NCBI GenBank assembly: GCA_006218025.1
Contig: VBWA01000022.1
Coordinates: forward strand, 1-64,000
From: Rhodocyclaceae bacterium
GTDB taxonomy: Bacteria; Pseudomonadota; Gammaproteobacteria; Burkholderiales; Rhodocyclaceae
DNA: 64,000 nt
Reading direction: 5' to 3'
The notes beneath the pieces are model-generated. The model did no database searches. It was given only the letters and a program-made list of their open reading frames with translations, and was not told where the DNA came from. A program made the translations under genes and the position numbers. Below, piece by piece: positions 14,032-37,763 of the stretch; the first letter of the stretch is position 1, and each line of letters opens with the position of its first letter.

Positions 14032-14053
14032 GCCGTACCGCCGGCGCCGACTC
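14032..14053 (-). repeat. REP-like repeat copy 3
   Basis: GCCGTACCGCCGGCGCCGAC follows the stop of the TerB-like gene within three bases, in inverse orientation. Confidence 0.65.
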
Positions 14054-14120
14054 TTGCCGACTGCGGCGCCAGCGCGAAATCAGGTCTGCACCCGGCACAA
14101 ATCGACAGCCACCGCTCGCG

Positions 14121-14528: not shown

Positions 14529-14730
14529 CGTGAAATCTCCTTGAAGGTCGGTGCCGTGTCGGTGCAAGAAAGTCCGTTGCTTGATCTGCCAGCGTAAGGG
14601 AATCCCAGACTGACCCGTTTCGCCCGGAGAATCGCGGCGGGGGCGATACGGTCGAGATGGCGATCGACGGTGTCGGCTGACGGGTCAATCGCTTCGCCTG
14701 AAGCTTACCCCGGACCGCGGCGATCGGCAT

Positions 14731-14775
14731 GCCGTCAGCGCCAGCGCGGTGCGTCCCTTCGGGAACTTTTCAGCG
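14731..14775 (-). repeat. REP-like half-copy fused to a second repeat (copy 4)
   Basis: GCCGTCAGCGCCAGCGC is followed by GGTGCGTCCCTTCGGGAACTTTT. Almost the same right-hand block (GTGCGTCCCTTTGGGAACTTTT) follows another copy inside HK1 at 24602-24624, so the two parts travel together. It overlaps the 3' end of the lysE-family gene by a few bases. Confidence 0.7.
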
Positions 14776-15399
14776 ATGCGCCGATGACGCGAGCTTGAGC
14801 CCGAGGCCGATCATGACGCCGCCGGCCAGGCGATCCACCCAGACCTTGCTGCGCAGATAGACGCTGCGCGGACGCTCCGACGCCAGAGCCAGCGCCACCA
14901 GCGCGTACCACCCGGCTTCGACCAGGAAGACCAGCACGACGAGAGTAACGTCGAATGCCAGCGACTGCGCGCCGGGCAGGAAGGCCGCAAAGACGCTGGC
15001 ATAGACGATCGCCGTCTTCGGATTGCTGATCTGCGTCGTGAAGCCCAGCGCCAGCGCCCGCGTGGTCCGCGTCGCCGGCCGTTCGGCGAGGTCCCCGATC
15101 ATGAGCGGCTGCGCCGCCGACGCCCAGATGCGCCAACCCAGATACGCCAGATAAAGACCGCCGATCAGCTTGAGCACGAGGTAGAGCGAGGGCACCGCAA
15201 GCAGCAGGGCATGCAGGCCGAGCAGCGCGGCGACGGCAAACACCACGCCGCCCGCCCCCATGCCGAGCGCCGCGGCAATGCCCTCGCGCCGCGAAGTGCA
15301 GACCGCCGTCCGCGCCACCATCACGAAGCTGGGACCGGGGCTCACTACGCCAACGGTGAGCGCCGCGAGGATTCCTATCAGGGCAGGCAGGTTTTCCAT
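14770..15399 (-). CDS. LysE/RhtB family amino-acid exporter
   Basis: Inner-membrane translocator of 209 aa with six hydrophobic helices. The N-terminal family motif GVVSPGPSFVMVARTAV and the glycine-rich GMGAGGVVFA are diagnostic of LysE/RhtB exporters of amino acids or homoserine lactone-type compounds. The substrate cannot be read from sequence. A short repeat fragment overlaps its last codons. Confidence 0.9.
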   Translation of the reverse strand: MENLPALIGILAALTVGVVSPGPSFVMVARTAVCTSRREGIAAALGMGAGGVVFAVAALLGLHALLLAVPSLYLVLKLIGGLYLAYLGWRIWASAAQPLMIGDLAERPATRTTRALALGFTTQISNPKTAIVYASVFAAFLPGAQSLAFDVTLVVLVFLVEAGWYALVALALASERPRSVYLRSKVWVDRLAGGVMIGLGLKLASSAHR

Positions 15400-15454
15400 G
15401 GTTCGATAAAAGTTTGCTCGCTGCGTCCGGGTTCAGGGCCGCCGCAATGCAGTG

Positions 15455-15943
15455 TCAGACATGAAGTTCAAATCGCTGTTCATTTACCTCGGCACCCCAT
15501 TGTGTACCGCGTTGCTGGACGGCCAGGCGAAAGCCGAACCTCTCATACAGATGCCTTGCGGCATCAAGGCCTTCGAACGTCCACAGATATACCCGTTCGT
15601 AATGTCGTGATTGACAGAATTCCATCGCCGAAGTGAGCAAAGCCGTCCCGACGCCGGTTCCGCGCATGCTGTCCGAGGCGATGAACCAGCGCAGATGCGC
15701 CCCCTCCTGCCCGCCACGGGACCCGTCGACTGCAATCGACCCCTCGATACTGCCATCCTGCAGCGCGAGCCAGAGACCGTCGCGTTCGTCGACATAGCGT
15801 TCGCAGAATTCGGAAAGCTCGCGCGCCACCTTGCTCTCGAACGGGAGACCAAATCCGACGAGTTCGCGGTAATAGCGAGCGTGAAGCTCGACGATTCTTC
15901 CGATAGAGCCGGGCAGGTAGCCTTTGTGGATTGCAACAGTCAT
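15455..15943 (-). CDS. GNAT family N-acetyltransferase
   Basis: Acyl-CoA transferase of 162 aa. The acetyl-CoA binding loop is SMRGTGVGTALL (R-x-x-G-x-G), and the surrounding HLRWFIASD strand and ARHLYERFGFR helix are typical of GNAT enzymes. The substrate is unknown. The N-terminal YYRELVGFGLPFESKVARELSEF segment resembles GNAT domains fused to MarR regulators, but no regulator domain is attached here. Confidence 0.88.
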   Translation of the reverse strand: MTVAIHKGYLPGSIGRIVELHARYYRELVGFGLPFESKVARELSEFCERYVDERDGLWLALQDGSIEGSIAVDGSRGGQEGAHLRWFIASDSMRGTGVGTALLTSAMEFCQSRHYERVYLWTFEGLDAARHLYERFGFRLAVQQRGTQWGAEVNEQRFELHV

Positions 15944-15989
15944 GATGAAATTAGAAAGGGCCAGATGTTCATAACAGCCGGTCTACCTC

Positions 15990-16008
15990 ACTCCGACCCC
16001 TTTGGCTT
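15990..16008 (+). repeat. Left 19-bp direct repeat flanking the BrnTA module
   Basis: ACTCCGACCCCTTTGGCTT recurs with one change at 16737-16755, so the two copies bracket brnT/brnA. A 12-bp inverse copy of the core lies at 60166-60177. Confidence 0.7.
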
Positions 16009-16023
16009 ATCGCGCGGCAGGCT

Positions 16024-16374
16024 TTATGCGCGAGGTCCGCTCGAACGACGGGTTGGGGCCTGGGCGTCAACATACGCATCGATGAGCCGACGAATCATGC
16101 GTTGGTACTGAGTGTGATGCTTTGTGGCCTCTGACTTGAAGAACTCGATACTCTTCTTGCTCAGAGCCAGAGTTACTTTCACGCCTTCTTCACGAAATGC
16201 CAATTCGGCTGGTGAAGGGAGAAAGTCGGGAACCACCTGAACCTTGCCAAGAGGTTCATCGGTGTATTTGATTTTAGTTTCGGCGTAACCCCGGCCAGCG
16301 CCGGCATTAGCCTTCACTGAAACTTCGCTACGCTGCGTTTTAGCGAAACTCGCCTTGCTCGTTTTCGCGCTCAT
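16024..16374 (-). CDS. brnA: BrnA-like antitoxin
   Basis: Antitoxin of 116 aa with a C-terminal ribbon-helix-helix-type segment (VKVTLALSKKSIEFFKSEATKHHTQYQRMIRRLIDAYVD). It would bind the BrnT toxin and repress the operon. It starts at MSAKTSKAS (16374), inside the last codons of brnT, the usual BrnT-then-BrnA order. The N-terminal 50 residues are disordered and Lys/Ser-rich. Confidence 0.85.
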   Translation of the reverse strand: MSAKTSKASFAKTQRSEVSVKANAGAGRGYAETKIKYTDEPLGKVQVVPDFLPSPAELAFREEGVKVTLALSKKSIEFFKSEATKHHTQYQRMIRRLIDAYVDAQAPTRRSSGPRA

Positions 16375-16636
16375 AGATCGCCTTTCCTTTGCGCCAATAG
16401 CCGGCGCCGATGATTCGAATAACCGAAGCGCGGTAAGTGAACCGCACCGTGAGCACACCTCCATCAACTTCGCCGAAGCAATAGAACCGCTCCTCGGTCT
16501 GGCTGTGAGTCTCGTCCTTGGCAATCACGCGCTGCGGGTCCGCAAAGGCATATTGGGCACGGGAGAAAGAGACTCCGTGCTTTCCCTGATTCTCGGTGTC
16601 CTTGTCAGGATCCCAGTCGAAGCGGGCTTTTGCCAT
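16340..16636 (-). CDS. brnT: BrnT-like ribonuclease toxin
   Basis: RelE-fold toxin of 98 aa. The BrnT signature FDWDPDKDTENQGKHGVSFSRAQYAFADP is at the N-terminus, followed by SQTEERFYCFGEVDGGVLTVRFTYR and a final RIIGAGYWRKGKAIYER block. It would cleave RNA and be neutralised by the overlapping BrnA. Start ATG 16636 (MAKARFDW) is preferred. A longer in-frame start at 16672 is possible but atypical. Confidence 0.9.
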   Translation of the reverse strand: MAKARFDWDPDKDTENQGKHGVSFSRAQYAFADPQRVIAKDETHSQTEERFYCFGEVDGGVLTVRFTYRASVIRIIGAGYWRKGKAIYERENEQGEFR

Positions 16637-16736
16637 GGATACAGAGTAGCACTTGCCCATACAAAAAGCCATACGTTGATATGGAAGGCCCTAACGGTCA
16701 AACAAAACGAACCCGACCCGATATCGCGGCTAAATG

Positions 16737-16755
16737 ACTCCGACCCCTTTAGCTT
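16737..16755 (+). repeat. Right 19-bp direct repeat flanking the BrnTA module
   Basis: ACTCCGACCCCTTTAGCTT differs from the left copy (15990-16008) at one base. Together they delimit a 0.75-kb unit that contains only brnT and brnA. Confidence 0.7.
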
Positions 16756-16795
16756 TCTGGACTAACAACGATACAACCGGCCTGACGGCCGGCCT

Positions 16796-17482
16796 TCAAT
16801 CCGAGGGGTTGACAGGAAGTCCCTTAGAGATGGGTTGGGCGTATTGACTGTATGCCGATGCACCCTGATGGATAGTACTTAGCACTTCATGTGCTATTTG
16901 CCGCATGCATATAAGCTCGGGGCGGCCATCGAGAGGTGCTGACGATCTTCCGTTTGAAAACACCCAGCCAAGCGAGTTTTCGCGGGATATCGCCATATAG
17001 GCCTCGTCCAACTCCGGATCGACATGGGCTCCACCATCGGTGTCGGCAACGTGAAGGACTAGTTCTCGTCGACAGAACTTCCTGCCTTGGTTGTCCTTGA
17101 GTACCGGATCGTTCCACCAATTTACGAAAGATATGGGTTGCAAGCCCATCGGTCCGCCGCCCGTTGCAACGAGTGGTAAGTATCGCGCACCAGTATTGGA
17201 AAGGTGCATAGCGACAAGATTGCATTCAGTTGCGATATTTCTGGGGTTAAGCGGCGGAGCTGACGTCAGGTATCGCCCAGAACGCAAACCGAGTTGATCA
17301 AGAAGGGCGCGGGACTGCCGATGGTCGTGTAAGAGAACGCGAAGACTAAGAGCAATATGCTTTCCAACAGCTTCTAAGCCGTTGTCGAAGGCTTGGCAAG
17401 AATGGCGCAAAAGGGCGATCTGCTCGATCAGCTCACGTTTCAGTTCGTCTTTCGGTCTTTGGACTCGCTTCGGCTTGGTCAT
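16796..17482 (-). CDS. Hypothetical protein, possible integron-cassette gene
   Basis: Protein of 228 aa with no family I recognise. It is soluble, with a basic N-terminus (MTKPKRVQRPKDELKRELIEQ) and a tryptophan-containing middle (PISFVNWWNDPVL). The segment ELVLHVADTDGGAHVDPELDEAYMAI holds a histidine-aspartate pattern but is not a known motif. Its start lies 12 bases beyond an attC-like site (17495-17577), the position expected for a cassette ORF. No paired second attC is obvious at its 3' end. Confidence 0.6.
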   Translation of the reverse strand: MTKPKRVQRPKDELKRELIEQIALLRHSCQAFDNGLEAVGKHIALSLRVLLHDHRQSRALLDQLGLRSGRYLTSAPPLNPRNIATECNLVAMHLSNTGARYLPLVATGGGPMGLQPISFVNWWNDPVLKDNQGRKFCRRELVLHVADTDGGAHVDPELDEAYMAISRENSLGWVFSNGRSSAPLDGRPELICMRQIAHEVLSTIHQGASAYSQYAQPISKGLPVNPSD

Positions 17483-17494
17483 GGCAATAAAGAC

Positions 17495-17577
17495 GCCCAA
17501 CGAATAGCGTTTATCCGCCGCTGAGGGAGAGCAGGATGAGCACGGAGGGTCATGGCGGCGGATAAACCTCGTTGGAC
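17495..17577. repeat. Integron attC-like recombination site
   Basis: The 83-bp unit begins GCCCAAC (fits RYYYAAC) and ends GTTGGAC (fits GTTRRRY). Outer arms CCAACG/CGTTGG pair, then come unpaired spacers, then 13-bp perfect inner arms GTTTATCCGCCGC/GCGGCGGATAAAC around a non-conserved centre. This matches attC architecture (R and L boxes with an unpaired spacer). No integron integrase gene is in the window, so it would be an isolated or relic site. Confidence 0.65.
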
Positions 17578-17661
17578 TGAACCGCCAGTGTGGCGGTGGC
17601 TAAAGTCAAATAGGGTCAGCATCAACATACCGCGTAGGACTGAGCAGAAATCACTCCTCGC

Positions 17662-17686
17662 ACCGTGCCGCCAGCGCCGACTTCTG
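17662..17686 (-). repeat. REP-like repeat copy 5
   Basis: ACCGTGCCGCCAGCGCCGAC lies six bases beyond the glgP stop codon, in the space between glgP and the attC-like site. Confidence 0.65.
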
Positions 17687-17691
17687 GCCGT

Positions 17692-20166
<2,475 letters not shown>

Positions 20167-20481
20167 GGCACGCTCCCCGGAACGAGACGAATCACATGAT
20201 ACCCGCCGGGACCCAATCCGCCGACAGGGAATCTCTGTTGGCCCATGCGGCGAAATCCGTTTGCAGCACCGCGCGCCGCTGATCGCCAGATGCTGGCGGA
20301 ACTTTTTATGCCGATTACTACCCACGAATTTGTCTTGCGCGTATGCTGGAACCATGCTCGCTGCAACGCAGTATGCACAAAGTAATATGCGAGGTGGCTG
20401 CCATGAATGCTTCGGTGTCACATGTTCCCCCGTCATGACACGACCGGCTGCCGCCAGACAGCCAGGGAATGCCTGGGCCAC
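20167..20481. other. Intergenic region between glgP and HK1
   Basis: A 315-base stretch without a gene that must hold divergent promoters. I see no convincing -35/-10 pair, terminator or repeat. An in-frame upstream ATG at 20407 could extend HK1 but would add a non-conserved leader. Confidence 0.5.
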
Positions 20482-23400
20482 ATGAAACCCGCATTGACCC
20501 TTGGCCTGCGCGGCCGCCTGATTCTGTTGCTGCTGACGGCGTTTGCCATGTTGATCGGCCTGGTCGCATGGAACTTCGTCGGCGACCGCAACGAGCATAT
20601 CAACGCCGCGAAGGCGGAACTGCTCAGTCGGGCCAGAGTGATCGCCGCCCAGCAGCATTCCCTCGTCGATCAGGCCGACGCGATTCTCAACAATCTGACG
20701 CAGAGCCCGGAGTTGAGGCCGGGGATGCCCGCGGCGGCATGCGCGCGCTTCCTTTCGGTGCGGATCAAGCAGCAACCGGCGTTCGTCCAGGCCGGCCGGA
20801 TGCTGCCGAACGGCGAACTCGCCTGCTCGGCGGCTCCCGCCACGGGGCGCGTCAACCTGGCCGACCGCAGCTGGTTTCAGTCAGCCCTTCAGTCCCGCGA
20901 AATGGTCATCAGCGAAGTGATGCAGGGCCGCATTCTGGGCAAGCCGGTCATCGTCTTCGCCAAGACCATGCGCGACGAGGCCGGGGACATCACCGGCGTT
21001 CTTTTCCTGTCGCTCGACCTGGGTTGGCTGCAGCGCGAGCTGGCGACCGCCCACCTGCCGAAAGACACACGACTGGTGGTGGTGGATGCCCAAGGCACTT
21101 TAGCGGTGCGCCACCCCGATCCCGAGGGGTGGGTCGGCAAGAGTGTCGCCAACCAGCCACTGTTGAAACGCATTCGGGCTGCGGGTGGCGAAGGCACGGC
21201 GGAAGAAATCGACATGTTCGGGAAGCGCCGGCTGTTCGCCTTCACGAGGCTGCTGGACACCGTGTCCGGCCCGATTTACATGTGGCTGGGCCAACCGCAA
21301 GAAGTGGTCGAGGCCCCGGCACTGCACGCGGCCTGGCTGAACTTCGGCGTCACGCTGGCGGTCCTCGTCGCCACCCTGTGGCTGTTGGTCTGGGGCGGCG
21401 GCCGCCTGGTGGTGCGGCCCCTGTTGACGCTGTCGCAGGCGGCGGCGCGCTTCAGCGAAGGGGATTTGAGCGTGCGCACCGGCCTGCCGCATACCGACGA
21501 CGAGATCGGAAGGCTGGCGCGGATACTGGATGAAACGGCTGTCGGCATCGAGGAAAGGGAGCGCAGGCTCGCCTACGCCAACCGGGCCTTGCGCGTCCTT
21601 TCCGCCAGCAACCGCACTTTGCTGCACGTGCATGACGAGCAGGAACTGCTGCACGACATGTGCCGGGCCATCGTGGATGCCGGCGCTTACCGCATGGCCT
21701 GGGTCGGCTACGCGATGAGCGACAAGCGCGTGCGGCCGGTGGCCTCCTGGGGCGCCGAGGCGGACTTTCTCGACAGCCTGAACGTCACCTGGGACGAAAC
21801 GGCGTCGGGGCGCGGGCCAACCGGCACGGCGATTCGCCAGGGCATTCCCGTCGCCTGCAGCAATATGCAGACGGACCCCGATTGCGGCCCATGGCTGGAA
21901 CATGCGCAAGCTTACGGCTATGCCTCGTCGCTGGCCCTGCCCTTGCGACTCGACGGTATCGTCATCGGTGCGCTGAGCATTTACGCCGCTGAGCAGGATG
22001 CCTTCAGCGAGGACGTGATCGACATGCTCAGCGAGGCGGCGGGCGACCTGGCCTACGGCATCGCCGCGCAGCGCGCGGAAGGTGAGCACTTGCGCACGCG
22101 CGGAGAGCTGAAACGGCTGGAAACAAGAAATACTCTCATCCTCGACTCGACCGGCGAAGGCATTGTCGGTCTGGACCGGGATGGACGCGCCACATTCATC
22201 AACGCGGCGGCCGGCGCGATGCTGCAATTCAATGCAGAACAGGTATCCCGCCAGACGCTGCATGCCCTGCATCATCACACGAAGGACGACGGCACGCCGT
22301 ATCCGCCCGAGGAATGCCCCATCGAAGCGACTTGCCGCGACGGCGGCGTCCGTCGCGTGGCCGACGAGATATTCTGGCGCAGTGACGGCACGAGTTTTCC
22401 AGTCGAGTATGTCAGCACACCGATCCGTAACGAGCAGGGCGACGTGGCGGGCGCAGTGGTGATCTTCCGCGACATCACCGAGCGCAAGCTGGCCGAGCAG
22501 GATCTCCGCGACAGCGAGGAGCGCTTCCGTGTCGCCATGGAAAGCATTCGCGACGCCTTCATCGTCATCGCCGGCGAAGGGGGAAAGATCGTGCTGTGGA
22601 ATTCCGCCGCCGCGGCGATGTTCGGCTACGACAAGGACGAGGCGATCGGCCGGCCGCTGCACCAGCTCATCGTGCCGCCCCGCTTCCACGAGGCGGCGTA
22701 CGCCGGCCTGGCAAATTTCGCCCGCACCGGGGAAGGCGCGGCGATGGGCAGGACGATGGAGCTTGCAGCCCTGCGCAGGGACGGAACGGAGTTCCCGGTC
22801 GAACTGTCCCTCTCGGCGGTGCAGATCAGCGGCCGCTGGCATGCTGCCGGCATCATCCGCGACATCACCGAAAGCAAGCGCTCCGAGGATCTGCTGCGCA
22901 AACTCTCGCTGACCGTCGAGCAGAGCCCGGAGAGCATTCTCATCACCAATGTGGATATCGAGATCGAATACGTGAACGAGGCTTTCGTGCGCGCCACCGG
23001 CTACAGCCGCGAGGAGGCGATCGGCCGGACCCCGCGCTTCCTGCGTTCCCGCAAGACCCCGCCGGAAACCTATACGGCCCTGTGGGAAGCGCTGGCCGCC
23101 GGCCGGTTCTGGAAAGGCGAACTGCAAAACAAGCGCAAGGACGGCAGCGACCATGTCGAATTCGCCATCGTCACCCCCATCCGCCAAGCCGACGGGCGCG
23201 TCACCCACTACGTCGCGGTGATGGAGGACATCACCGAGAAGAAGCGTCTCGGCCTGGAACTCGACCGTCACCGCGAACATCTCGAAGAACTGGTGGAGAG
23301 CCGCACGGAGCAGCTGACGGAGGCACGCGAGCAGGCCGAAGCGGCCAACCGGGCCAAGAGCGCCTTCCTCGCCAACATGAGCCACGAGATCCGCACGCCG

Positions 23401-25245
23401 ATGAACGCCATCATCGGCCTCACCCACCTGATGAAGCGCGCCGGGGCGACACCCGAGCAGGCCGAGCGGCTGGCCAAGATCGACGGCGCCGCGCAGCACC
23501 TGCTGTCCATCATCAACGACATCCTCGATCTGTCGAAGATCGAGGCCGGCCGGCTGCGGCTCGAAAGCACCGACTTCCACCTCTCCGCGATACTGGACAA
23601 CGTCAGCTCCCTCATCGGCGAGCAGGCCGCGGCGAAGGGACTGAGCCTCGCCGTGGATACCGATAGCGTGCCCCTCTGGCTGCGCGGCGACCCCACCCGG
23701 CTGCGCCAGGCCCTGCTCAACTACGCCGGCAACGCGATCAAGTTTACCGAGCACGGCACCATCAGCCTGCGCGCCAGGCTGATGGAAGAGACCGACGACG
23801 AACTGCTGGTTCGCTTCGAGGTGGCAGACACCGGCATCGGAATCGCCGCGGACAAACTGCCCCGGCTGTTCCATGCCTTCGAGCAGGCCGACGCCTCGAC
23901 CACGCGCAAATTCGGCGGCACCGGCCTCGGCCTCGCCATCACCCGCCGGCTGGCGCAACTGATGGGCGGCGAATCCGGCGTCGATAGCACGCCGGGAGCG
24001 GGCAGCACCTTCTGGCTCACCGCGCGCCTGCAGCGCGGCCACGGCGTGATGCCTGCAGTCCCGGTCATGGGCGAAACAGACGCCGAAGCCCGGCTGCGCC
24101 AGCATCACGGCGGCGCGCGGCTGCTGCTGGCCGAGGACAACCTGATCAACCGCGAAGTGGCGCTGGAACTGCTGCACGGCGCCGGTCTGGCCGTGGATAC
24201 GGCGGCAGACGGACAAGAGGCTGTGAACAAGGCGCGGGGCAAGGACTACGCGCTGATCCTGATGGACGTGCAGATGCCCCGCATGGACGGCCTCGAAGCG
24301 ACGCAGGCGATCCGCGCCCTGCCGGGCTGGGAAACCAAACCCATTCTGGCCATGACGGCCAACGCCTTCGATGAAGACCGCCGAGCCTGCCTGGCAGCAG
24401 GCATGGACGACTTCGTCGCCAAGCCGGTCGATCCCGAGGCGCTCTTCGCCGCGCTGCTGAAGTGGCTGCCGCACTCCCATTCACCCTCTCCCCGGCCCTC
24501 CCCCGTCAAGGGGGAGGGAGCAGAAGCCCCTTTCCCCTGGCGGGAGAGAGGTTGGAGAGAGGGCGGAGAGGGTGGAGACGCCGTCCCGCCAGCGCCAGCG
24601 CTGTGCGTCCCTTTGGGAACTTTTGCAGGGGCAGCGACGGACGACGATGCCGAATGGCGCCGTCGCCTGGCGGCCATCCCCGGCCTCGACCTGACGCGCG
24701 GACTGGAGATCGTGCGCGGCAAGGCGGCGAAGTTCGCCCGGCTGCTGCGCATGCTCGCCGCCGGCCACGCGGAAGACACGCGGCAGATCGCCGAGCGGCT
24801 CGCCGCCGGCGACACGGAGCAGGTGCAGCATCTGGCCCATGCGCTCAAGGGTTCGGCCGGCAATCTGGGGGCGATGCAAGTGGCGGCGGCAGCCGACGCC
24901 CTGCAGGCGGCGATTCGCCATGACGCAGGGCAGGACGCGATCTCGCGTCTCGCCGACATCCTGGCCACCGAATTGCAGCCCCTGATCGACGGCATCCAGG
25001 GCCTTCCCGCCGATGCCGAGGAGTCGCCGGCGAATGCGGATCCGGCGCGCGTCACGGCCGTGCTTGCGCAACTGGAAGCCCTGCTGGCAATCAGCGACGT
25101 CGCCGCCAACGATCTGGCGCGACAGGAGGACAGACTGCTGCGCGCGGCCCTCGGCACCGCCGCCGAGGACATCCTGCGCCGCATCGCGGTTTTCGACCAC
25201 GAGGGCGCGCTCGCCGCCCTGCACGCCGAGATGACGCATACGTAA
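20482..25245 (+). CDS. Hybrid sensor histidine kinase HK1 (dCache-HAMP-GAF-PAS-HisKA-REC-Hpt)
   Basis: Membrane kinase of 1587 aa. In order: TM1 ([18 protein letters not shown]), periplasmic dCache-like sensor (about 32-280), TM2 (about 285-305), HAMP, GAF (about 370-530), three PAS domains, HisKA with [15 protein letters not shown] (His968), HATPase with [16 protein letters not shown] with [13 protein letters not shown] (Asp1262), and Hpt with [12 protein letters not shown] (His1453). It thus carries a full four-step phosphorelay. The REC-Hpt linker (about residues 1333-1385) is built from repeat DNA at 24478-24628. It is a close paralog of HK2, which starts 260 bases downstream. The stimulus is unknown. 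Confidence 0.9.
24478..24628. repeat. Repeat DNA inserted in frame in the HK1 REC-Hpt linker (includes REP copy 6)
   Basis: The left part (24478-24575) is a hairpin repeat of the CCCTCCCCC/GGGGGAGGG type encoding Ser/Pro/Arg-rich sequence ([13 protein letters not shown]). The right part (24577-24628) is an inverse REP-like copy fused to the GTGCGTCCCTTTGGGAACTTTT block. The reading frame stays open throughout. The paralogs HK2 and HK3 lack this stretch. Confidence 0.75.
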
Positions 25246-25504: not shown

Positions 25505-28500
25505 ATGAAACCCGCATTGAACCTCAGCCTGCGCGGCCGCCTGATCCTGCTGCTGCTGGCGGCGTTTGCGATGTTGATGGGTCTGATCGCCTGGCACGGA
25601 ATCGACGACCATGCCGAGCGGGTGCGCGCCGCCTCCACACAACTGCTGGCCGATGCGAAGCTGATCGCGGCCCGGCAGCAATCCATTGCCGCGAAAGCCG
25701 ATGCGACCCTGGCGAACTTGATGTCGAGCCCGGAATCGCTGCCGGGCGCGCCCGCCGAGACCTGCGGGAGGTTTCTTGCGGCGCGGATCGAGCCGCAATC
25801 AGAGTTTGTCCAGGCCGCCCGGACGCTGCCGGACGGCGAACTCGCCTGCGCGGCCGTTGCCGCTGCGAGCCGCGTCAACTTTGCCGACCGCAACTGGTTC
25901 CAGGCGGCCCTCAAGTCGCACGGAATGGTCGTCAGCGAGGTGGTCACAGGGAAGATTCTCAACCAGCCGATCATCGTCTTCGCCAAGGCCATGCGCGACG
26001 AGGCCGGGGGCGTGGCAAGCGTTCTCTTTGTCTCACTGAGCCTGGACTGGCTGCACCGGGAACTGACGGCCGCCAGCCTGCCGAAAGGTACGCGGCTGGT
26101 GGTGGTCGATGCCAAGGGCATCGTCGCCGTGCGCCACCCCGATCCGGAAGGCTGGGTCGGGAAGAGCGCCGATCACCTGACGCTGGTCCAGCGCATTCGA
26201 AGCACAGGAGGCGAAGGTCTTGCGAAGGACGTGGGCCTGGAAGGAGATGCCAGGCTATTCGCCTACGCGAAACTGATGGATACGGTAGCCGGCCCCATGA
26301 GCTTATGGCTGAGCGTGCCGACAGCAGTGATCGAGGCTCCGGCATGGCGCGCGGCCCTGTTCAATCTCGCCATCACGCTCGCGGTGCTGCTTGCCACGCT
26401 GGGACTGCTGGTCCTCGGCAGCAACCGGCTGGTGGTGCGCCCCCTGCGGACCCTGTCGCAGGCCGCGGCACGCTTCAGCGCCGGCGACCTGAGCGTCCGC
26501 AGCGGGCTGCCGCACACCGAGGACGAGATCGGGTGGCTGGCTCAGGTGCTGGATGAAACGGCTGTCGGCATCGAGGACAGGGAGCGCAGGCTGGCTCAAG
26601 CCAACCGCGCCTTGCGCGTCCTCTCCGCAGGGAATCGGACCATGCTGCACGCGCATGACGAGCCGGGATTGCTGCAGGACATGTGCCGTGCCATCGTCGA
26701 GGCCGGCGGCTACCGCATGGCCTGGGTAGGTTATGCCGAAAACGACAGACGAGTGCGGGCGGTGGCATCCTGGGGCGCCGAAGCGGACTTTCTCGACAGC
26801 CTGAACGTCACCTGGGACGAAGCGGCTTCGGGCCGCGGGCCGACCGGCACCGCAATCCGCCGCGGCATCCCCGTCGCCTGCGGCAATACGCAGACGGACC
26901 CCGACTACCGTCCCTGGATGGAACAGGCGCAGCGTGCCGGCTATGGATCGTCGCTGGCCCTGCCGCTGCGGCAGGACGGCACCGTCATCGGCGCGCTCAA
27001 CATCTATGCCGCGGAGCCCGATGCCTTCGGCGAGGATGTGGTCGAGCTGCTCAGCGAAGCGGCGGCCGACCTGGCCTATGGCATCGGCATGCAGCGCGCG
27101 AAAGCTGCGCACGAACGCACCCAGGCCGAGATGAATCTGCTGGAACAGCGGAACACGCTGATCCTTCAGGCGACCGGCGACGGCATCTACGGCCTCGACC
27201 GGGAAGGACGGGCCACCTTCATCAATCCGGCCGGCGCGGCGATGCTGCAGCGGACGCCGGCAGAGATCATCGGCCAGACCATGCATGACCTGAATCACCA
27301 CACGCGAACCGACGGCACGCCGTATCCACGAGAGAAATGCCCGGTCTGCGCGACCTGCCGGGAAGGCGCCGTTCACCGGATTACCGGCGAGGTATTCTGG
27401 CGCAAGGACGGCACGAGTTTCCCCGTCGAGTATGTCAGCACGCCGTTGCACGACGGCCACGGCAATCTGACGGGGGCAGTAGTGAGCTTCCGCGACATCA
27501 GCGTGATCAAGCAGGCCGAGAAGGATCTGCGCCGAAGCGAGGCGCGCTTCCGCAACATCACGGAAACGGCCCGCGATGCCATCATCACCCTCGACGGGGA
27601 CGCCGGAACGGTCATCGAATGGAATCCCGCGGCCGAGGCGATTTTCGGCTACACGAAAAGCGAGATGGTCGGGCAACTGCTGCACGACATGATCACCCCT
27701 CCCCGCTTCCGCGAGGCGGCGAGCGCCGGCCTCGCGCATTTCGCGACCACCGGAGAAGGCGCGGCGGTCGGCAAGACGCTGGAACTACCGGCCTTGCACA
27801 AGAACGGAACCGAATTCCCCATCGAGCTTTCCCTGTCCGCGATGCGGATTCAAGGCAAATGGCAGGCCACCGGCATCGCGCGCGACATCACCGAACGCAG
27901 GAAGGCCGAAGAGGCGCTGCGCGAGAGCGAAGCCCGCTTCAAGATCATGTTCGACGAGGCTCCGCTGGGCATCGCCTTGATCGACTCGCTCAACGGGCAT
28001 CTGTATTCATTCAATCCCATGTTCGCCAGGATTGCGGGCAGAACCATGGAGGAAATGGCGGACATCGACTGGATGAGCATTACCCATCCGGATGATGTCC
28101 AAAAGGATCTGGACAACATGGCGCTGTTGAATGCCGGAAAAGTATCCGGGTTCCAGATGGAAAAGCGCTATCTCCACCCTGACGGCACCGCCGTCTGGAT
28201 CAATATGACCATTGCGCCGGTTTATGTCGAGGACAAGGCACATCCGCGTCACCTCTGCATGATCGAGGACATTTCCGAGCGCAAGGCTGCCGAGGTGCAA
28301 CTGCGCAAACTCTCTCTGGCGGTGGAGCAGAGCCCGGAGAGCATTGCCATCACCAACCTCGATGCCGAGATCGAGTACGTCAACGAATCCTTCGTTCGCA
28401 ACACCGGCTACAGCCGGGAGGAAGCGCTGGGGCAGAACCCGCGCATCCTGCACTCGGGCAAGACCCCGCATGAAACCCATGTTGCCATGTGGGCTGCGCT

Positions 28501-30550
28501 GACCCAAGGCCAGCCATGGAAGGGCGAGTTCCGCAACAAGCGCAAGGACGGCAGCGAATACATCGAGTTTGCCATCATCACGCCGCTGCGCCAGCCCGAC
28601 GGAACCATCACGCACTACGTCGCGGTGAAGGAAGACATCACCGAGAAGAAGCACGTCGGCGAAGAACTGGACGAGTACCGCCACCGCCTGGAAGAAAAGG
28701 TCAAGACGCGCACACAGCAGCTGGCCAAGGCCAAGGCCGCGGCGGAGACCGCCAACCAGGCCAAGAGCGCCTTCGTCGCCAACATGAGCCACGAGATCCG
28801 CACGCCGCTCAATGCCATTCTCGGGCTCACTTATCTGTTGCAGCGCAGCGCCGACCCGGCGCAGATGGACAAGGTCGGCAAGATCCGCAGCGCTTCCCAG
28901 CATCTGCTTTCGGTGATCAACGACATCCTCGACTTTTCCAAGATCGAGGCCGGCAAACTCACCCTGAATGTCGTCGACTTCGCGCTGGACCGCATGCTGG
29001 ACAACGTCGTTTCCATGATCGGACCGCGGGTGCGCGACAAGAAGCTGCAACTCATGGTTGACCGCGATGCAGTGCCGCCGGTGCTGGTCGGCGATTCCAC
29101 CCGGCTGGCGCAGTGTCTGCTCAACTATCTTTCCAATGCCGTCAAGTTCACCGAGAGCGGCACCATCACCGTGCGTCTTTCCAAGGTCGCGGAAACGGAC
29201 ACCGATCTGCTGGTGCGCTTCGAGGTCGCGGACACAGGCATCGGCATCTCCCGCAAGAACCAGGGACACCTGTTCGAGGCTTTCGAGCAGGCCGACGCCT
29301 CCACCACCCGCCGCTATGGCGGTACCGGCCTGGGCCTCGCGATCACCCGGCGGCTGGCACACCTGATGGGCGGAGAAGTCGGCGTCGACAGCACACCGGA
29401 CCAGGGCAGCAGCTTCTGGTTCACCGCGTGCCTGTGCAAAAGCCAATACACCGTGGAGGAGCTGGCCGAGGTACCCACGGTGTCCGAAGGGACGGTACGC
29501 ACGCTGCAGAGCGGTCACCGCATCCTGCTGGCCGAGGACAACCTCATCAACCAGGAAGTAGCGATGGACCTGCTGACCGAGGCCGGCCTCAGGGTCGACG
29601 TGGCCAACAACGGCCGCGAGGCGCTGGAGAAGGCGCAGACCGGCGACTACGACCTGATCCTCATGGACATCCAGATGCCGAAGATGGACGGCCTCGAAGC
29701 CACCCGCGCGATCCGCCAGTTTCCCGGCCTGGAGGCACTGCCCATCCTGGCGATGACGGCCAATGTCTTCGACGAGGACCGCGCGCGCTGCATCGCCGCC
29801 GGCATGAACGATTTCGTGGCCAAGCCGGTCGATCCGCAGCAGCTCTTCGGCGCGCTGCTGCGCTGGCTGCCGGAATTCAGGAGCGACGCCGCGTTCGACA
29901 GCGCGGCGAAACCGGCTGCCGCCGTATCGCCAGCGCCGACTCTTGCCCTTGCGGGCATAGCCGGTCTCGACACGGCACAGGGCCTCAGGACGCTGAACGG
30001 CAATGTCGCCGCCTACACCCGGTTGCTGCGCCGCTTTGCAACCGACCATGCCGGCGACATGACCAGGCTGCGCCAGCGACTGACCGCGAAGGAGCGCGAG
30101 GAAGCGCGGCGCGTCGCCCATACGCTGAAGGGTGTCTCGGGCAACATGGGGGCAACCACGGTGCAGCGCCTGGCGGCCGAACTGGAGGCGGCGCTGAAGC
30201 ACGGCGGCGACGCGGCGCGGATCGAGTCATTGGCCGCTGCCGCCGAAGCCGAGCTGCAGGCGCTGGCCGCGGCGATCCTCGCCGCGCTGCCGGAGGAAAC
30301 CGCAGCCACGCCGGTGGAGGTGGATTGGGCGGCGGTGCACCGGGTGCTCGATGAACTGGAGCCGCTGCTGGCGACATCCAGCATGCAGGCCAACGATCTG
30401 TTCGAGGAAAACGCCGCCCTGCTCGAGGCCGCGCTCGGCCCCCTGGGCGCGTCGCTGGAGCTGCGCATCAGGGGCTTCCTTTACCCCGAGGCGCTCGAAA
30501 CCATCCGCGAAGCACGCGCGAAACATTCTGAATTGGGAGGCGGGATATGA
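25505..30550 (+). CDS. Hybrid sensor histidine kinase HK2 (dCache-HAMP-GAF-PAS4-HisKA-REC-Hpt)
   Basis: Membrane kinase of 1681 aa with the same plan as HK1 plus one extra PAS. In order: TM1, dCache-like periplasmic domain, TM2, HAMP, GAF, four PAS domains, HisKA ([15 protein letters not shown], His1096), HATPase ([13 protein letters not shown]), REC ([13 protein letters not shown], Asp1388) and Hpt ([12 protein letters not shown], His1539). The GAF domain is nearly identical to that of HK1, while the catalytic part is closest to HK3. A REP-like copy encodes part of the REC-Hpt linker. The stop overlaps the porin gene, giving translational coupling. Confidence 0.9.
29921..29946 (-). repeat. 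REP-like repeat copy 7 inside HK2
   Basis: GCCGTATCGCCAGCGCCGAC is read in frame as AVSPAPT in the linker between the REC and Hpt domains of HK2, the same linker that is enlarged by repeats in HK1. Confidence 0.65.
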
Positions 30551-31719
30551 AAACCTTACCGAAAGCCGGCGTTGTTCTTTTTCTCTTGTCAGGCGGGCCT
30601 GTTCTTGCAGGCGGGCTGTCCACCCCGGGCCAGGGTGCACGTGCCCTCGGCATGGCGGGTGCATTTACGGCCGTGGCGGACGACGGATCGGCCATCTACT
30701 ACAACCCGGCCGGAATCAGCCAGATCGATGGAACCGCGGTCGAGGTCAGCCTGGCCGCGATCTCTCCGGAGTTGCGATACACGACGCCCGGCGGTGCAAA
30801 CGAGACCAGCACCAAAAAAGCCCTCGCCCCGGCCTTGTTCATTACGCACCGCCTGACAGACAGGCTCAGCGCCGGTCTCGGCGTGTACGCCCCCTATGCC
30901 CGGGATGCGGAACTTCAGGACGACCTCGTCAACGGCTTCGCCTGGCAGCGGTCGAAGATGGTGAGAACAGACCTCAGCGCGGTCGTTTCCTGGCAGATGA
31001 GCGATACGTTTTCCATCGGGGGAGGACTGATAGCCGGCTTCAGCCAGGTGGATCGGTCGATCCCGGCGGGCCCCGGCGTGAGAATCGCCGACAAGGTCGA
31101 CGGCACGGGCTTCGGCGGCATCGTCGGCCTCCTGTGGAAAGTCGGCGACCGCCTCAAGGCAGGCGCCACCTACAGGAGCGGAATGTCCATCGACCATGAC
31201 GGCCAAAGAACCATGACCATCGCTGGAGTCGCCACCACGAGCAACGCACGGGCGGAAGTCCGCTATCCGGCATCGTTCGGTCTCGGCATCGCGTTCACCC
31301 CGTCGGAAAACCTGACCCTGGCCCTGGATGTGGACTGGTACGGATGGATCTCGATGGATCAGGTGACGACAAGGACGGACATCTGGCCCGATTCCACCAC
31401 CCAACTCAAGGCGGGAAACAGCCGTGATGTCAGGATCGGCGGCGAATACAGGCTGCCGGCGGGCTGGAGCCTGCGGGCAGGCTATGCCTATATCCAGGGC
31501 GCGTTTCCCGATACCCATATCACTCCTTCACAGCCGGATGGTGACGGCCATGAACTCGGTCTGGGGGTCGGGCGGAAAATGGGGAACTGGCGATTCGATC
31601 TGGCCTACCAGAACACCGTCGCTCGCGAGCAAAATGGGTCGGCCAACATTTTCGGCTACAACGGAAAACAAAACATAAGGCAGCATGTGCTCGGGCTCAC
31701 GGCCGGGTACAGATTCTGA
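30547..31719 (+). CDS. Outer-membrane FadL/OmpP1-family transport protein
   Basis: Outer-membrane beta-barrel of 390 aa from the family that moves long-chain fatty acids or other hydrophobic compounds across the outer membrane. It has a signal peptide, then the OmpP1/FadL start [34 protein letters not shown], repeated amphipathic strands, and a C-terminal aromatic residue (GLTAGYRF), as required for barrel insertion. It overlaps HK2 and precedes a STAS-like gene, so a signalling operon includes a hydrophobic-substrate porin. Confidence 0.93.
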
Positions 31720-31737
31720 AGGGCAAGGTGCGCGGAA

Positions 31738-32123
31738 ATGGAAAACCGGGAAGTCGTCAACATCACCAAGGCCGGCATGTGGCTGGGAGAGGACGGCATC
31801 GTCCGCATCATGTGGATTCCCGGCGCGGAAGTGACGCTGGAGGACGCCGAGGAGAGCATGGCGGCCTACCTGCAGATCAACCAGGGCAAGAGGCGTCCGA
31901 TGGTCGTCGACACCAGCCAGATGAAATCACTGGCCCGGGAAGCCCGTCACCTTTATGCAAGCGAGGAGGCGGCGAAGGTTGCCAGCGCGGTGGGCCTCAT
32001 CGTCGGCACGCCGGTCAGCCGGGTGCTGGGCAACTTCTACCTCGGCCTCAGCAACCCGCACCTGCCGACCCGTCTGTTCGATTCGGAATCCGAAGCCCTG
32101 GAATGGCTGAAGGGGTATATCGA

Positions 32124-32127
<4 letters not shown>
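31738..32127 (+). CDS. STAS/SEC14-like small protein
   Basis: Protein of 129 aa that resembles the STAS/SpoIIAA-like family (DUF7793 type). A short N-terminal strand pair ([27 protein letters not shown]) is followed by [24 protein letters not shown], where STAS proteins place their regulatory Ser/Thr loop, and a C-terminal helix. A partner-binding switch role is inference. It starts 18 bases after the porin, and its stop overlaps the HK3 GTG start. Confidence 0.6.
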
Positions 32128-35278
<3,151 letters not shown>

Positions 35279-35282
<4 letters not shown>

Positions 35283-36421
35283 GCGCCGGCGCGAAAGCCC
35301 CACCGACCCGCCCGACCATCCTGGCCGTCGACGACGACACCACCAATCTGGCCATCCTGGGCCGGCTGCTCAATCCGCATTACAGAGTCCTCGCCGCGCC
35401 CTCGGGCGAGCGCGCACTTGCCATTGCCGCCGGCGAACCGCGCCCGGACCTGATCCTGCTCGACGTGCTGATGCCGGGCATGGATGGCTACGCCGTGCTG
35501 GGACGGCTGCGCGAGAACCCGGCGACGCGCGACATCCCGGTCATTTTCGCCACCGGGCTGGACTCGACCGAGGACGAGGAGAAGGGGCTCGCGCTCGGCG
35601 CCGTGGATTACATCGCCAAACCCTTCCGGCCGCCGGTCGTGCTGGCGCGCGTGCACACCCACCTCGAACTCAAGCTCGCCCGCGACTGGCTGAAAGACCA
35701 GAACGTCTATCTGGAGGCCGAGGTGGCGCGACGCACGCAGGACATCCTGCTGGTCCAGGACATCACCATCGACGCGCTGGCCGAACTGGCCGAGACGCGC
35801 GACCCCGAAACCGGCAACCACATCCGCCGCACCCGGGAATACGTGCGCATCCTCGCCACGCGTTTGCAGGCCCATCCGCGCTATTCGGACTTCCTGACCG
35901 TTACGACCATCGAGCTTCTGACCAAGTCCGCCCCGCTGCACGACATCGGCAAGGTGGGCATCCCCGACCACATCCTGCTCAAACCGGGCAGGCTCGACCC
36001 CGAGGAGTGGGCCATCATGCAGACCCATGCCCGGCTGGGCGCGGACGCCATCGAGCACGCCATCGCGCACGCCGAGCGGGATGCCGCCAGGCCGGTGGCA
36101 TTTCTCGCCCTGGCCCGGGAAATCGCCCATTGGCATCACGAGAAGTGGGACGGCAGCGGCTACCCGGACGGACTCGCGGGGGAGGCCATCCCGGTGTCGG
36201 CCCGGCTGATGGCGCTGGCCGATGTCTTCGACGCCCTGATCTCGCCGCGCGTCTACAAGCAGCCGATGCCCTTCGATCAGGCCCGCGCGATCATCGTCGA
36301 GGGTCGCGGCGGCCATTTCGATCCCGACGTGGTGGATGCCTTCCTCGCCGGCTTCGACGAATTCACGGCCATCGCCGGACACTACCGCGACGACGAAGCG
36401 GCAGCGACGGGACCAGTCTGA
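35279..36421 (+). CDS. Response regulator with HD-GYP c-di-GMP phosphodiesterase domain
   Basis: Cytoplasmic protein of 380 aa. An N-terminal REC domain ([21 protein letters not shown] with Asp62, YIAKPF) is followed by an HD-GYP domain containing [10 protein letters not shown] (His221-Asp222), the metal-site [14 protein letters not shown] and ADVFDAL. It would hydrolyse cyclic di-GMP when phosphorylated. It overlaps the HK3 stop and is the only separate output protein in the locus, so it is the natural phosphoryl acceptor of the Hpt domains. That link is inference. Confidence 0.94.
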
Positions 36422-36933: not shown

Positions 36934-37041
36934 GGCTTGTGCTCTTCTCATCGTCGATCGTACTTGGCGCAAAATTTCTAGTTGAATTTGCCGCTATATG
37001 TATATACACTTCTATCAGGACTCAAACGCGGAGCACACCGA

Positions 37042-37326
37042 ATGGCTATCATCATCTCGCCAGGCATAGCGAAAAAACTTGCCGAGAAACATGGAGTAAG
37101 GCCCGAAGAAGTTGGCCAATGCTTTGCGAACAGAACCGGCAAGTACCTTCTGGACACCAGGGCCAAACACCTGACGAACCCAATTACACGCTGGTTTATC
37201 TCGGAAACCGACCAAGGGCGAAAACTGAAGGTGGCGTTTATTCCGGAGGGTGGAGACACATTTATTCGGAGCGCCTTTGAACCGGATACCAATGAGATCA
37301 GTATATACAGTAAATACGGAACATGA
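37042..37326 (+). CDS. Putative toxin of a small toxin-antitoxin-like pair
   Basis: Protein of 94 aa (MAIIISPGIAKKLAEKHGVRPEEVGQCFANR...). From memory it resembles a family of small proteins with GKYLLDTR, RWFISETDQGRKLKVAFI and EISIYSKYG blocks, RelE/BrnT-like in pattern and usually next to a ribbon-helix-helix gene. The next gene encodes such a protein. ATG 37042 is preferred over an upstream in-frame start at 36982. Codon and base use are more AT-rich than the flanks. The toxin role is inference. Confidence 0.6.
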   Translation: MAIIISPGIAKKLAEKHGVRPEEVGQCFANRTGKYLLDTRAKHLTNPITRWFISETDQGRKLKVAFIPEGGDTFIRSAFEPDTNEISIYSKYGT

Positions 37327-37412
37327 ACTAATTATTAGCAAAACAATCACATACTCTGTAAATACTAACGTTTCAAGTTATAGTTGTTAAACACTAAGTG
37401 AGGGAGTTACAA

Positions 37413-37763
37413 ATGAGCAAGCAAACGATCCCGGATACGGAAGAAGCGTGGGACAAAAGGGATTTGGGTGCAGATGAGAGCTTCGTTGGAGTTGTTGGAG
37501 ACGAAGAAGAGGCTAGGATTGACGAGGCGGCCGGCACTCAGCTCATATCCATTCGCATGCAAAAGTCCATGATTGAGGATTTTAAGATGATTGCGTCGAT
37601 CAACAATGGAATCGGATATCAGACCCTTATGAAACAGATTTTGCAGCGATTCGTTGACTGTGAAATGAAAAGACTAGCTCGTGAAATATTGTCTGAAAGG
37701 ATGGCCGAGCAGCACAGGAAAGAATCCGCTAAGCAGCCCAACAAGCAACGTAAAGCGGCTTGA
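37413..37763 (+). CDS. Putative antitoxin with ribbon-helix-helix-type segment
   Basis: Protein of 116 aa with an acidic N-terminus and the core TQLISIRMQKSMIEDFKMIASINNGIGYQTLMKQILQRFVDCE, which fits CopG/BrnA-like DNA-binding antitoxins. The C-terminal tail is Lys/Arg-rich. GAGGGAG lies six bases before ATG 37413. An 86-base AT-rich spacer separates it from the upstream toxin-like gene. An intrinsic terminator follows. Confidence 0.65.
   Translation: MSKQTIPDTEEAWDKRDLGADESFVGVVGDEEEARIDEAAGTQLISIRMQKSMIEDFKMIASINNGIGYQTLMKQILQRFVDCEMKRLAREILSERMAEQHRKESAKQPNKQRKAA

What the first reader, a model, noticed from the sequence alone, without database searches (positions are those of the whole stretch)
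25505..36421. Candidate signalling system: hybrid kinase, FadL porin, STAS-like protein, soluble hybrid kinase and HD-GYP regulator
Five genes overlap or nearly touch (ATGA overlaps at 30547 and 35279, GTGA at 32124), so they are one operon, and a paralogous kinase (HK1) lies just upstream. Together they encode three complete phosphorelays (HisKA-REC-Hpt) but only one free receiver output, an HD-GYP phosphodiesterase. A hydrophobic-substrate porin in the middle suggests that uptake of a lipophilic compound is coupled to sensing and to lowering c-di-GMP. I know of no described system with this composition.
Basis: partly seen in the sequence, partly recalled or inferred. Interest (0 to 1): 0.7.

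Follow-up and report, generated by a model that had tools for sequence, protein, structure and literature searches.

The report
STAS protein plus headless HAMP module
The operon carries a portable two-gene sensor front end, a small STAS-like protein and a HAMP domain with no receptor of its own, that bacteria plug onto kinases, cyclic-di-GMP enzymes or gene regulators; here it sits on a kinase next to an enzyme expected to break down cyclic di-GMP, with a fatty-acid-type porin gene beside it.

Summary
The five genes are real, on one strand, with the overlaps stated. The kinase/HD-GYP pairing is ordinary: HD-GYP relatives (about 65-70% identical) lie near kinase-like genes in 21 of 24 loci fetched, and the locus looks like an expanded kinase-HD-GYP pair with a mosaic inner kinase. 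The interesting part is the junction read as STAS-like protein plus soluble kinase. The small protein is DUF7793 (SpoIIAA/STAS-like fold). The kinase begins with a HAMP-fold domain, unrecognised by Pfam, with no membrane segment or sensor before it. In the genomes searched this headless HAMP occurs only directly behind DUF7793: 24 of 24, including 8 of 8 in genomes not chosen for DUF7793 (four other hits were membrane chemoreceptors). The pair stays together while the output changes: HisKA kinase (7), HisKA_2 kinase (6), GGDEF cyclase (4), AraC-type regulator (7). I infer that DUF7793 is a detachable input subunit docking on the HAMP/coiled coil, as SiaC docks on SiaD. The FadL link is weaker: one distant relative has FadL-DUF7793-HAMP kinase-HD-GYP in the same order and another keeps a FadL remnant. 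No interaction, ligand or phosphotransfer was tested. RpfC/RpfG is the closest known output logic.

The parts
20482..25245 (+). paralogous membrane hybrid kinase upstream (HK0 in my scripts): dCache, HAMP, GAF, PAS, HisKA, HATPase, REC, Hpt
   Evidence: Pfam; a relative directly precedes the HD-GYP gene in same-genus locus L105
25505..30550 (+). membrane hybrid kinase, first gene of the operon (HK1 in my scripts): HAMP, GAF, PAS, HisKA, HATPase, REC, Hpt; dCache match below cut-off
   Evidence: Pfam; hydrophobic windows between residues 4 and 293
30547..31719 (+). FadL/OmpP1/TodX-family outer-membrane porin
   Evidence: PF03349 1.6e-42; 66-67% identical relative at the same place in L126; best NCBIfam model is PorV/PorQ family, below cut-off
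31738..32127 (+). DUF7793 protein, SpoIIAA/STAS-like fold; proposed detachable input subunit
   Evidence: PF25056 4.6e-30; AF2 pLDDT 86.6; Foldseek best 2q3l, then SpoIIAA, SiaC lower
32124..32372 (+). N-terminal headless HAMP domain plus start of coiled coil of the soluble kinase; no Pfam HAMP match
   Evidence: AF2 helix 13-26, connector, helix 42-82; 39 of the first 42 Foldseek titles name HAMP (E 0.06 and worse); DNA homology of L125, L126, L127 to the window ends at 32319-32322
32124..35282 (+). soluble hybrid kinase (HK2 in my scripts): HAMP, PAS, HisKA, HATPase, REC, Hpt; sequence mosaic
   Evidence: Pfam; front 83.5% DNA identity to L124 (31780-32683); catalytic half 81.1% to the first operon kinase (33465-35254)
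35279..36421 (+). REC-HD-GYP response regulator, predicted c-di-GMP phosphodiesterase (Asp62 in the receiver)
   Evidence: Pfam HD_5 and Response_reg; motifs; best NCBIfam model NosR-family HD-GYP regulator, 146 bits against a cut-off of 400

Best explanation
DUF7793 (31738-32127) and the HAMP domain that starts the soluble kinase (32124 to about 32320) form one split input module. The STAS-like protein acts in trans as the receptor subunit that the HAMP domain lacks: it binds the HAMP/coiled-coil stalk of the kinase dimer and sets its signalling state, as SiaC does on the stalk of the cyclase SiaD. In this operon the output is a HisKA-REC-Hpt phosphorelay that most likely phosphorylates Asp62 of the adjacent HD-GYP protein and lowers c-di-GMP; the membrane kinase encoded first probably feeds the same regulator. 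Shown: the genes, the pairing across lineages, the exchange of outputs; the folds are predicted. Inferred: physical binding, direction of control, phosphotransfer, phosphodiesterase activity.
For: Pairing: 16 of 16 HAMP-profile hits in 13 genomes lie 3-198 bases downstream of a DUF7793 match on the same strand; in 277 genomes of the phylum of G488, searched with the HAMP profile alone (E up to 0.001), 10 of 14 hits have no membrane part before them (two in G488 itself) and all 10 follow DUF7793, while the other 4 are membrane chemoreceptors with the match starting at residues 277-283 and no DUF7793. Exchange: Pfam on all 24 distinct paired proteins gives 7 HisKA kinases, 6 HisKA_2 kinases, 4 GGDEF, 7 AraC-type. 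DNA homology ends at the end of the HAMP domain in three loci. No membrane-like window in 22 of 24; of the other two, one window lies inside the GGDEF domain (L195) and one is marginal, 1.62 (L206). Helix-3 motif S[RK]xxGNF[YF] in 15 of 22 paired and 0 of 40 unpaired DUF7793. Fold: SpoIIAA-like, SiaC among weaker hits. Precedent: SiaC binds the SiaD stalk, 'functioning as a sensory domain of SiaD' (PMC8457831, passages and Discussion). Kinase-like gene near HD-GYP in 21 of 24 loci.
Against: No complex was modelled or measured. The 16 of 16 count comes from genomes picked because they hold DUF7793 and from a profile built on DUF7793 neighbours; only the 8 of 8 outside G488 is free of the choice of genomes, not of the profile. 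Most DUF7793 genes found are unpaired (73 matches in 12 genomes, 15 of them paired). Distance agreement is strong overall (r 0.92, 0 of 5000 permutations) but shared ancestry explains much of it; within the six proteobacterial and six HisKA_2 pairs it is weak (121 and 310 of 2000 permutations as good), only the seven AraC pairs stand out (0 of 2000). HAMP Foldseek E-values are 0.06 at best; SiaC hits are weak (0.016-0.032) and the one solved DUF7793 relative, 3bl4, superposes poorly on the model (TM 0.35-0.40). Two unpaired copies come close to the motif (L139, L165). The kinase also has PAS domains that could be its sensor.
Confidence: 0.6

Rival explanations
1. Lipophilic-ligand version: FadL lets in a fatty-acid-like compound, DUF7793 carries it in a Sec14/CRAL-TRIO-like cavity, and loaded DUF7793 switches the HAMP kinase and hence the HD-GYP enzyme. 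This adds a ligand to the best explanation.
For: Best structural match of DUF7793 is 2q3l, a SpoIIAA-like protein with a deep nonpolar cavity proposed to carry nonpolar substances (abstract and passages of PMC2954212). FadL-DUF7793-HAMP kinase-HD-GYP order in L126 with FadL 66-67% identical; FadL 3' remnant of 45-46 codons before DUF7793 in L123. A fadL mutant responded 39% less to cis-2-hexadecenoic acid in the Salmonella hilA assay (passage of PMC7504960).
Against: No FadL of this kind in three of the six proteobacterial genomes with the pair (G484, G485, G487) and only a fragment beside the pair in G483; none found beside the pair in the other paired loci annotated. The 2q3l match is distant (15% identity). 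The best NCBIfam model for the porin is PorV/PorQ (61 bits, cut-off 90); the FadL equivalog scores 38 of 585. No cavity was measured.
Confidence: 0.25
2. Partner-switch version: DUF7793 is controlled by serine phosphorylation, as SpoIIAA is (and SiaC by threonine), and only one form binds the HAMP stalk.
For: SpoIIAA-like fold; Ser64, just before helix 2 of the model, is invariant in 12 of 12 proteins of A1. In 23 paired proteins it is Ser in 15 and Asp or Glu in 7, the kind of replacement expected of a phosphorylated site.
Against: It is Gly in L197 and acidic in L196, L200 and 5 of 7 AraC-paired copies, so not a universal switch. None of 12 flanking genes of nine paired loci scanned with Pfam is a SiaB/RsbW-type kinase or PP2C phosphatase (2 of the 12 had no match); other flanks were not scanned.
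Confidence: 0.15
3. Genetic hitchhiking: DUF7793 and the HAMP protein travel together by translational coupling and transfer, without direct contact; the kinase is driven by its PAS domains.
For: Overlapping stop and start codons in the six proteobacterial pairs; DNA homology blocks cover both genes; the paralogous kinases of the locus have no DUF7793 gene before them; soluble kinase RpfS binds DSF through a PAS_4 domain (passage of PMC4504480) and the kinase here has PAS_4 matches.
Against: The AraC pairs do not overlap (gaps of 17-76 bases) yet stay paired. By record titles the pair spans three phyla while output domains, PAS number and scanned flanking genes change. The kinases of L126, L128-L134, L197 and L200 have no PAS match, so no other input is apparent there.
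Confidence: 0.2
4. Ordinary expansion: a common kinase-HD-GYP pair that gained extra kinases and two unrelated genes by recombination; the operon has no integrated logic.
For: Same-genus L105 has a relative of the upstream kinase directly before the HD-GYP gene; HD-GYP relatives near kinase-like genes in 21 of 24 loci; the soluble kinase is a mosaic.
Against: The DUF7793-HAMP pair, and in L126 FadL and an HD-GYP gene with it, recurs in unrelated genomes.
Confidence: 0.2

Closest known systems
SiaABCD of Pseudomonas aeruginosa (SiaC-SiaD), with HsbA-HsbD and BgrV-BgrR
   Same: A small protein with STAS-related fold controls a signalling enzyme; SiaD lacks an N-terminal sensory domain and SiaC binds its helical stalk (PMC8457831, passages and Discussion). 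Here too GGDEF outputs occur.
   Different: DUF7793 is another family than SiaC (DUF1987); the target would be a HAMP domain; outputs also include kinases and AraC-type regulators; no SiaB-like kinase or PP2C phosphatase among the 12 flanking genes scanned.
RpfC/RpfG (DSF sensing, Xanthomonas)
   Same: Hybrid kinase with receiver and histidine phosphotransfer domain feeding an HD-GYP phosphodiesterase, with a fatty-acid signal (PMC4504480, passages).
   Different: RpfC senses through five membrane helices; the passages mention no STAS-like partner, and FadL only as a possible uptake route for free fatty acids. No sequence comparison with RpfC or RpfG was made.
HAMP domains, including poly-HAMP of the soluble receptor Aer2
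   Same: Predicted helix-connector-helix; Foldseek hits are Af1503 and Aer2 HAMP; a sister domain in L201 matches Pfam HAMP at 2e-4, below cut-off.
   Different: No receptor part precedes it, and none of the 13 rows of A3 matches Pfam HAMP.
SpoIIAA-like proteins 2q3l and 2ook (DUF3478)
   Same: Fold and proposed nonpolar cavity (PMC2954212, abstract and passages).
   Different: 15-17% identity; the words histidine kinase and operon do not occur in that paper.
3bl4, Arthrobacter Arth_0117
   Same: The solved structure nearest in sequence, E 1.4e-23.
   Different: Uncharacterised; it superposes poorly on the model. Two actinobacterial plasmid DUF7793 genes that I looked at have no kinase annotated next to them (that gene table is incomplete).

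Membership tests
DUF7793 (PF25056), SpoIIAA/STAS-like fold | profile match over the curated cut-off and SpoIIAA-like fold | tested here: met
   104.4 bits against 26; Foldseek 2q3l 3.1e-6, SpoIIAA 1thn 1.5e-4
HAMP domain | helix-connector-helix fold leading into a coiled coil | tested here: met
   AF2 model and Foldseek; E-values 0.06 and worse, probability up to 1.00
HAMP domain | Pfam PF00672 profile match | tested here: not met
   no HAMP match in any of 13 rows of A3, only single matches to four other families, best E 0.029; a sister, L201, matches at 2e-4, below the curated cut-off
SiaC-SiaD type stalk-binding control | small STAS-related partner encoded next to a signalling protein without a sensor part of its own before the stalk | tested here: met
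SiaC-SiaD type stalk-binding control | partner belongs to DUF1987 | tested here: not met
   DUF7793 and a weak SpoIIAA-like match only
SiaC-SiaD type stalk-binding control | direct binding and activation | not testable with these tools
   no complex prediction available
Partner-switching system | conserved phosphorylatable serine or threonine with kinase and phosphatase genes nearby | tested here: inconclusive
   Ser64 in 15 of 23 paired proteins, Asp/Glu in 7, Gly in 1; no such enzymes in 12 flanking genes
FadL/OmpP1/TodX porin | PF03349 over cut-off, full length | tested here: met
   145.9 bits against 29.7, profile 8-421 of 421; far below the NCBIfam FadL equivalog cut-off
REC-HD-GYP phosphodiesterase | receiver Asp, HD and HHE..DG.GYP motifs | tested here: met
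   activity not tested
RpfC/RpfG | RpfC-type five-helix membrane input | tested here: not met
   the soluble kinase has no membrane-like window; the first operon kinase has hydrophobic windows between residues 4 and 293 and a sub-threshold dCache match, not tested helix by helix

The most novel reading that the evidence does not exclude
DUF7793 plus headless HAMP is a portable split receptor found in several phyla: a lipid-carrier-like STAS protein is the sensor in trans for any output joined to the HAMP, and with FadL it forms a complete route from outer-membrane uptake of a lipophilic signal to c-di-GMP control.
Probability: 0.2. Interest if true: 0.8.

Novelty: new variant of a known kind. 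Interest (0 to 1): 0.58.

Why it matters
HAMP domains are understood as relays between a receptor before them and an output after them (established knowledge). A HAMP whose receptor is a separate STAS-like protein, reused with four kinds of output, would give a function to part of the DUF7793 family, extend the SiaC-SiaD principle from cyclases to kinases and transcription factors, and offer a small soluble test system (HisKA_2 kinases of 262-264 residues with partners of about 130 residues) for how HAMP domains are switched. If a lipophilic ligand is involved, it would also link a FadL porin to c-di-GMP control.

Tried and rejected
Rejected: the whole five-gene operon as a conserved unit. FadL has no close relative in the 60 other genomes (best E 5e-30, 29% identity), nor in 368 other class-level genomes at 1e-50; the pair-type DUF7793 was found in 2 of 398 phylum-level genomes at 1e-10, the window's own and one weak, unpaired match. 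Rejected: DUF7793 next to such kinases as a general rule; in the loci L005-L033 and L074-L095, from the window's genus, family or order, my HAMP profile had no hit. Rejected: plasmid origin; the operon DNA has no long match in plasmids (best 13% covered), the first 81 residues of the soluble kinase none and FadL only about 26% identical ones among those listed. Rejected: Ser64 as a universal switch residue. Literature searches for DUF7793 (no paper), STAS with kinase, HAMP and partner switch, HAMP with STAS, SpoIIAA-like/SEC14, HAMP with AraC and anti-sigma antagonist, FadL with HD-GYP and hybrid kinase and FadL with kinase and chemotaxis (15 of 368 listed) showed no paper that by title and start of abstract describes this pair. 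Of four papers I read passages (PMC8457831 with its Discussion, PMC2954212, PMC7504960, PMC4504480); no other full text was read.

Not done: prediction of the DUF7793-HAMP complex (no tool), comparison with cellular AlphaFold models, measurement of a cavity, phosphotransfer prediction, Pfam of all flanking genes. In the distance test the row L196 used its first, degenerate HAMP.
Full report
What is there. On one strand lie a membrane hybrid kinase (25505-30550), a FadL-family porin (30547-31719), a 129-residue protein (31738-32127), a second hybrid kinase (32124-35282) and a REC-HD-GYP regulator (35279-36421), with a paralogous membrane kinase upstream (20482-25245). Pfam supports the assignments; only the dCache match of the first operon kinase is below its cut-off. 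Overlaps and the 18-base FadL-DUF7793 gap are as read. Catalytic and phospho-acceptor motifs are intact, and the second operon kinase has no transmembrane-like window. No coding-strand terminator-like site separates the genes. The organism was not identified.

The ordinary part. HD-GYP relatives of 61-71% identity are abundant in related genomes. I fetched 24 such loci, one of them the second copy in the window's own genome, and found a same-strand kinase-like gene within 1.3 kb in 21, nearly always downstream of the HD-GYP gene; the three without were L108, L109 and L121. In three of the 21 (L099, L107, L117) the neighbour showed only sensor-part similarity, with the end of the stretch or contig near. 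In same-genus locus L105 a kinase related to the upstream paralogue (64-71% identity) directly precedes the HD-GYP gene with a 4-base overlap; DNA matching the paralogue's end and the HD-GYP gene lie next to each other there. The operon's first kinase is related to the upstream paralogue (75.7% DNA identity over 2423 aligned bases), and the soluble kinase's catalytic half is 81.1% identical to that of the first kinase over 1808 bases. So the locus looks like an expanded kinase-HD-GYP pair into which FadL, DUF7793 and the front of the soluble kinase were added. This history is inferred from similarity, not from a tree.

The small protein. It matches PF25056, DUF7793, at 104 bits, and SpoIIAA-like weakly. 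The AlphaFold2 model (12 rows, pLDDT 86.6) is closest to 2q3l, a SpoIIAA-like protein, with SpoIIAA and other anti-sigma antagonists following; SiaC appears lower (E 0.016-0.032). By sequence the only clear solved relative is 3bl4 (E 1.4e-23), which however superposes poorly on the model (TM 0.35-0.40, rmsd 15); I did not resolve why.

The front of the soluble kinase. None of 13 related front ends matches Pfam HAMP; four other families match one row each, best E 0.029. The model (pLDDT 86.1) is helix 13-26, connector, helix 42-82. Of the first 42 structural matches 39 name HAMP in the title, the other three being WalK, Af1503 and chemoreceptor models; E-values are only 0.06 and worse. A sister domain in L201 matches Pfam HAMP at 2e-4, below cut-off. 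I therefore call it a headless HAMP: no membrane helix or sensor precedes it.

The pair. A scan of genome contigs with DUF7793 gave 14 loci; in 12 of 14 the next gene, overlapping or within a few bases, starts with the same HAMP; the two others, L135 and L136, are distant relatives at 26-30% identity. In the window's genome and those 12 genomes, 16 of 16 HAMP-profile hits lie 3-198 bases behind a DUF7793 match. These genomes were chosen for DUF7793, so I searched 277 genomes of the phylum of G488 with the HAMP profile alone: 14 hits in 12 genomes at E up to 0.001. Ten have no membrane part before them (two in G488 itself) and all ten have DUF7793 directly upstream, confirmed by Pfam for the eight outside G488 and for L196. 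The other four (L205, L208, L209, L210) are chemoreceptors by Pfam, with strong hydrophobic windows before a HAMP match that starts at residues 277-283, and no DUF7793. One of the ten (L196) has a degenerate HAMP first and a good one at residue 60. Together 24 of 24 headless HAMPs are paired; one partner, in G484:C48, is a DUF7793 matched over its C-terminal part only. Conversely most DUF7793 genes are not paired: 73 matches in the 12 genomes, 15 of them in pairs; G488 alone has 22 and two pairs.

Exchange of outputs. Pfam on all 24 paired proteins gives 7 HisKA kinases (window, L123, L126, L134, L196, L197, L200; in L134 the HisKA match is below cut-off but HATPase is over it), 6 HisKA_2 kinases (L128-L133), 4 with GGDEF (L124, L125, L127, L195) and 7 AraC-type regulators (L201-L204, L206, L207, L211). 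DNA homology of L125, L126 and L127 to the window stops at 32319-32322, the end of the HAMP domain; that of L124 (83.5%) runs to 32683, after the first PAS. Twelve flanking genes scanned in nine loci are of many kinds. DUF7793 of the kinase and cyclase pairs carries S[RK]xxGNF[YF] in the third helix: 15 of 22 paired, 0 of 40 unpaired; the seven without are the AraC type. The window, which has it, and L196, which lacks it, were not in that set, and two unpaired copies (L139, L165) come close. Distances of the two proteins agree (r 0.92 over 23 pairs), but within groups only the AraC pairs are clear, so I give this little weight.

How it probably works. The module behaves as one input with many outputs. 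SiaC, structurally related to STAS domains, binds the helical stalk of the cyclase SiaD and serves as its sensory domain (PMC8457831, passages and Discussion). By analogy DUF7793 would bind the HAMP/coiled coil and set the state of the dimer. Here this would gate a phosphorelay from His to receiver to Hpt of the soluble kinase and on to Asp62 of the HD-GYP protein. Every step after the gene arrangement is inferred. Whether DUF7793 is itself switched by a ligand or by phosphorylation is open: Ser64 before helix 2 is Ser in 15, acidic in 7 and Gly in 1 of 23 paired proteins.

FadL. The order FadL, DUF7793, HAMP kinase, REC-HD-GYP recurs in L126, by its title a proteobacterial MAG from a marine rock biofilm, with FadL 66-67% identical; there the kinase is not hybrid and the HD-GYP protein is a different, 506-residue type. 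L123 keeps the last 45-46 codons of FadL before DUF7793. L124, L125 and L127 show only short resemblances to the FadL end in the alignment, which could be chance. Genomes G484, G485 and G487 gave no match to this FadL. 2q3l-type proteins have a nonpolar cavity and were proposed as carriers of nonpolar substances (PMC2954212), and FadL matters for the response to a cis-2-unsaturated fatty acid in a Salmonella assay (PMC7504960). Against it, NCBIfam's best model for this porin is PorV/PorQ, below cut-off, not FadL. The lipophilic-signal idea is reasonable but unproved.

Known relatives. RpfC/RpfG is the closest described logic for hybrid kinase to HD-GYP (PMC4504480, passages); its sensor differs. 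The best NCBIfam model for the HD-GYP protein is the NosR family, well below its cut-off. I found no paper on DUF7793, and the searches listed in Tried and rejected showed none on the pair by title or start of abstract.

Noticed in passing
L135 (WOR-3 MAG contig), 9154-20333: A tandem run of DUF7793-like genes of about 110-135 residues, many with blastp hits to the window protein: an unexplained amplification of the family.
   Followed up: no
L201, L202, L203, L204, L206, L207, L211: The AraC-type pairs lie between similar neighbours, in L201 an aminotransferase-family gene on the other strand and a MauE-like membrane protein gene; Pfam was run on the L201 neighbours only.
   Followed up: partly
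G484:C48 (L195 4825-5238): A second DUF7793 copy in G484 matches only its C-terminal part, after an N-terminal part with a hydrophobic stretch, followed by HAMP-PAS-GGDEF.
   Followed up: partly
L196 5072-6943: Paired kinase with two tandem HAMP domains, the first degenerate.
   Followed up: yes
window 37036-37763: Small gene pair: a 96-residue frame without Pfam match followed by a CopG-like antitoxin match below cut-off; possible toxin-antitoxin pair.
   Followed up: no
window 47939-49690: 583-residue open frame without Pfam match; may not be a gene, as long frames on the other strand overlap it.
   Followed up: no
same-order DUF7793 loci of genus g89, e.g. L085-L087, L089-L091: A separate, unpaired DUF7793 group recurs in one genus of the window's order; function unknown.
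   Followed up: no
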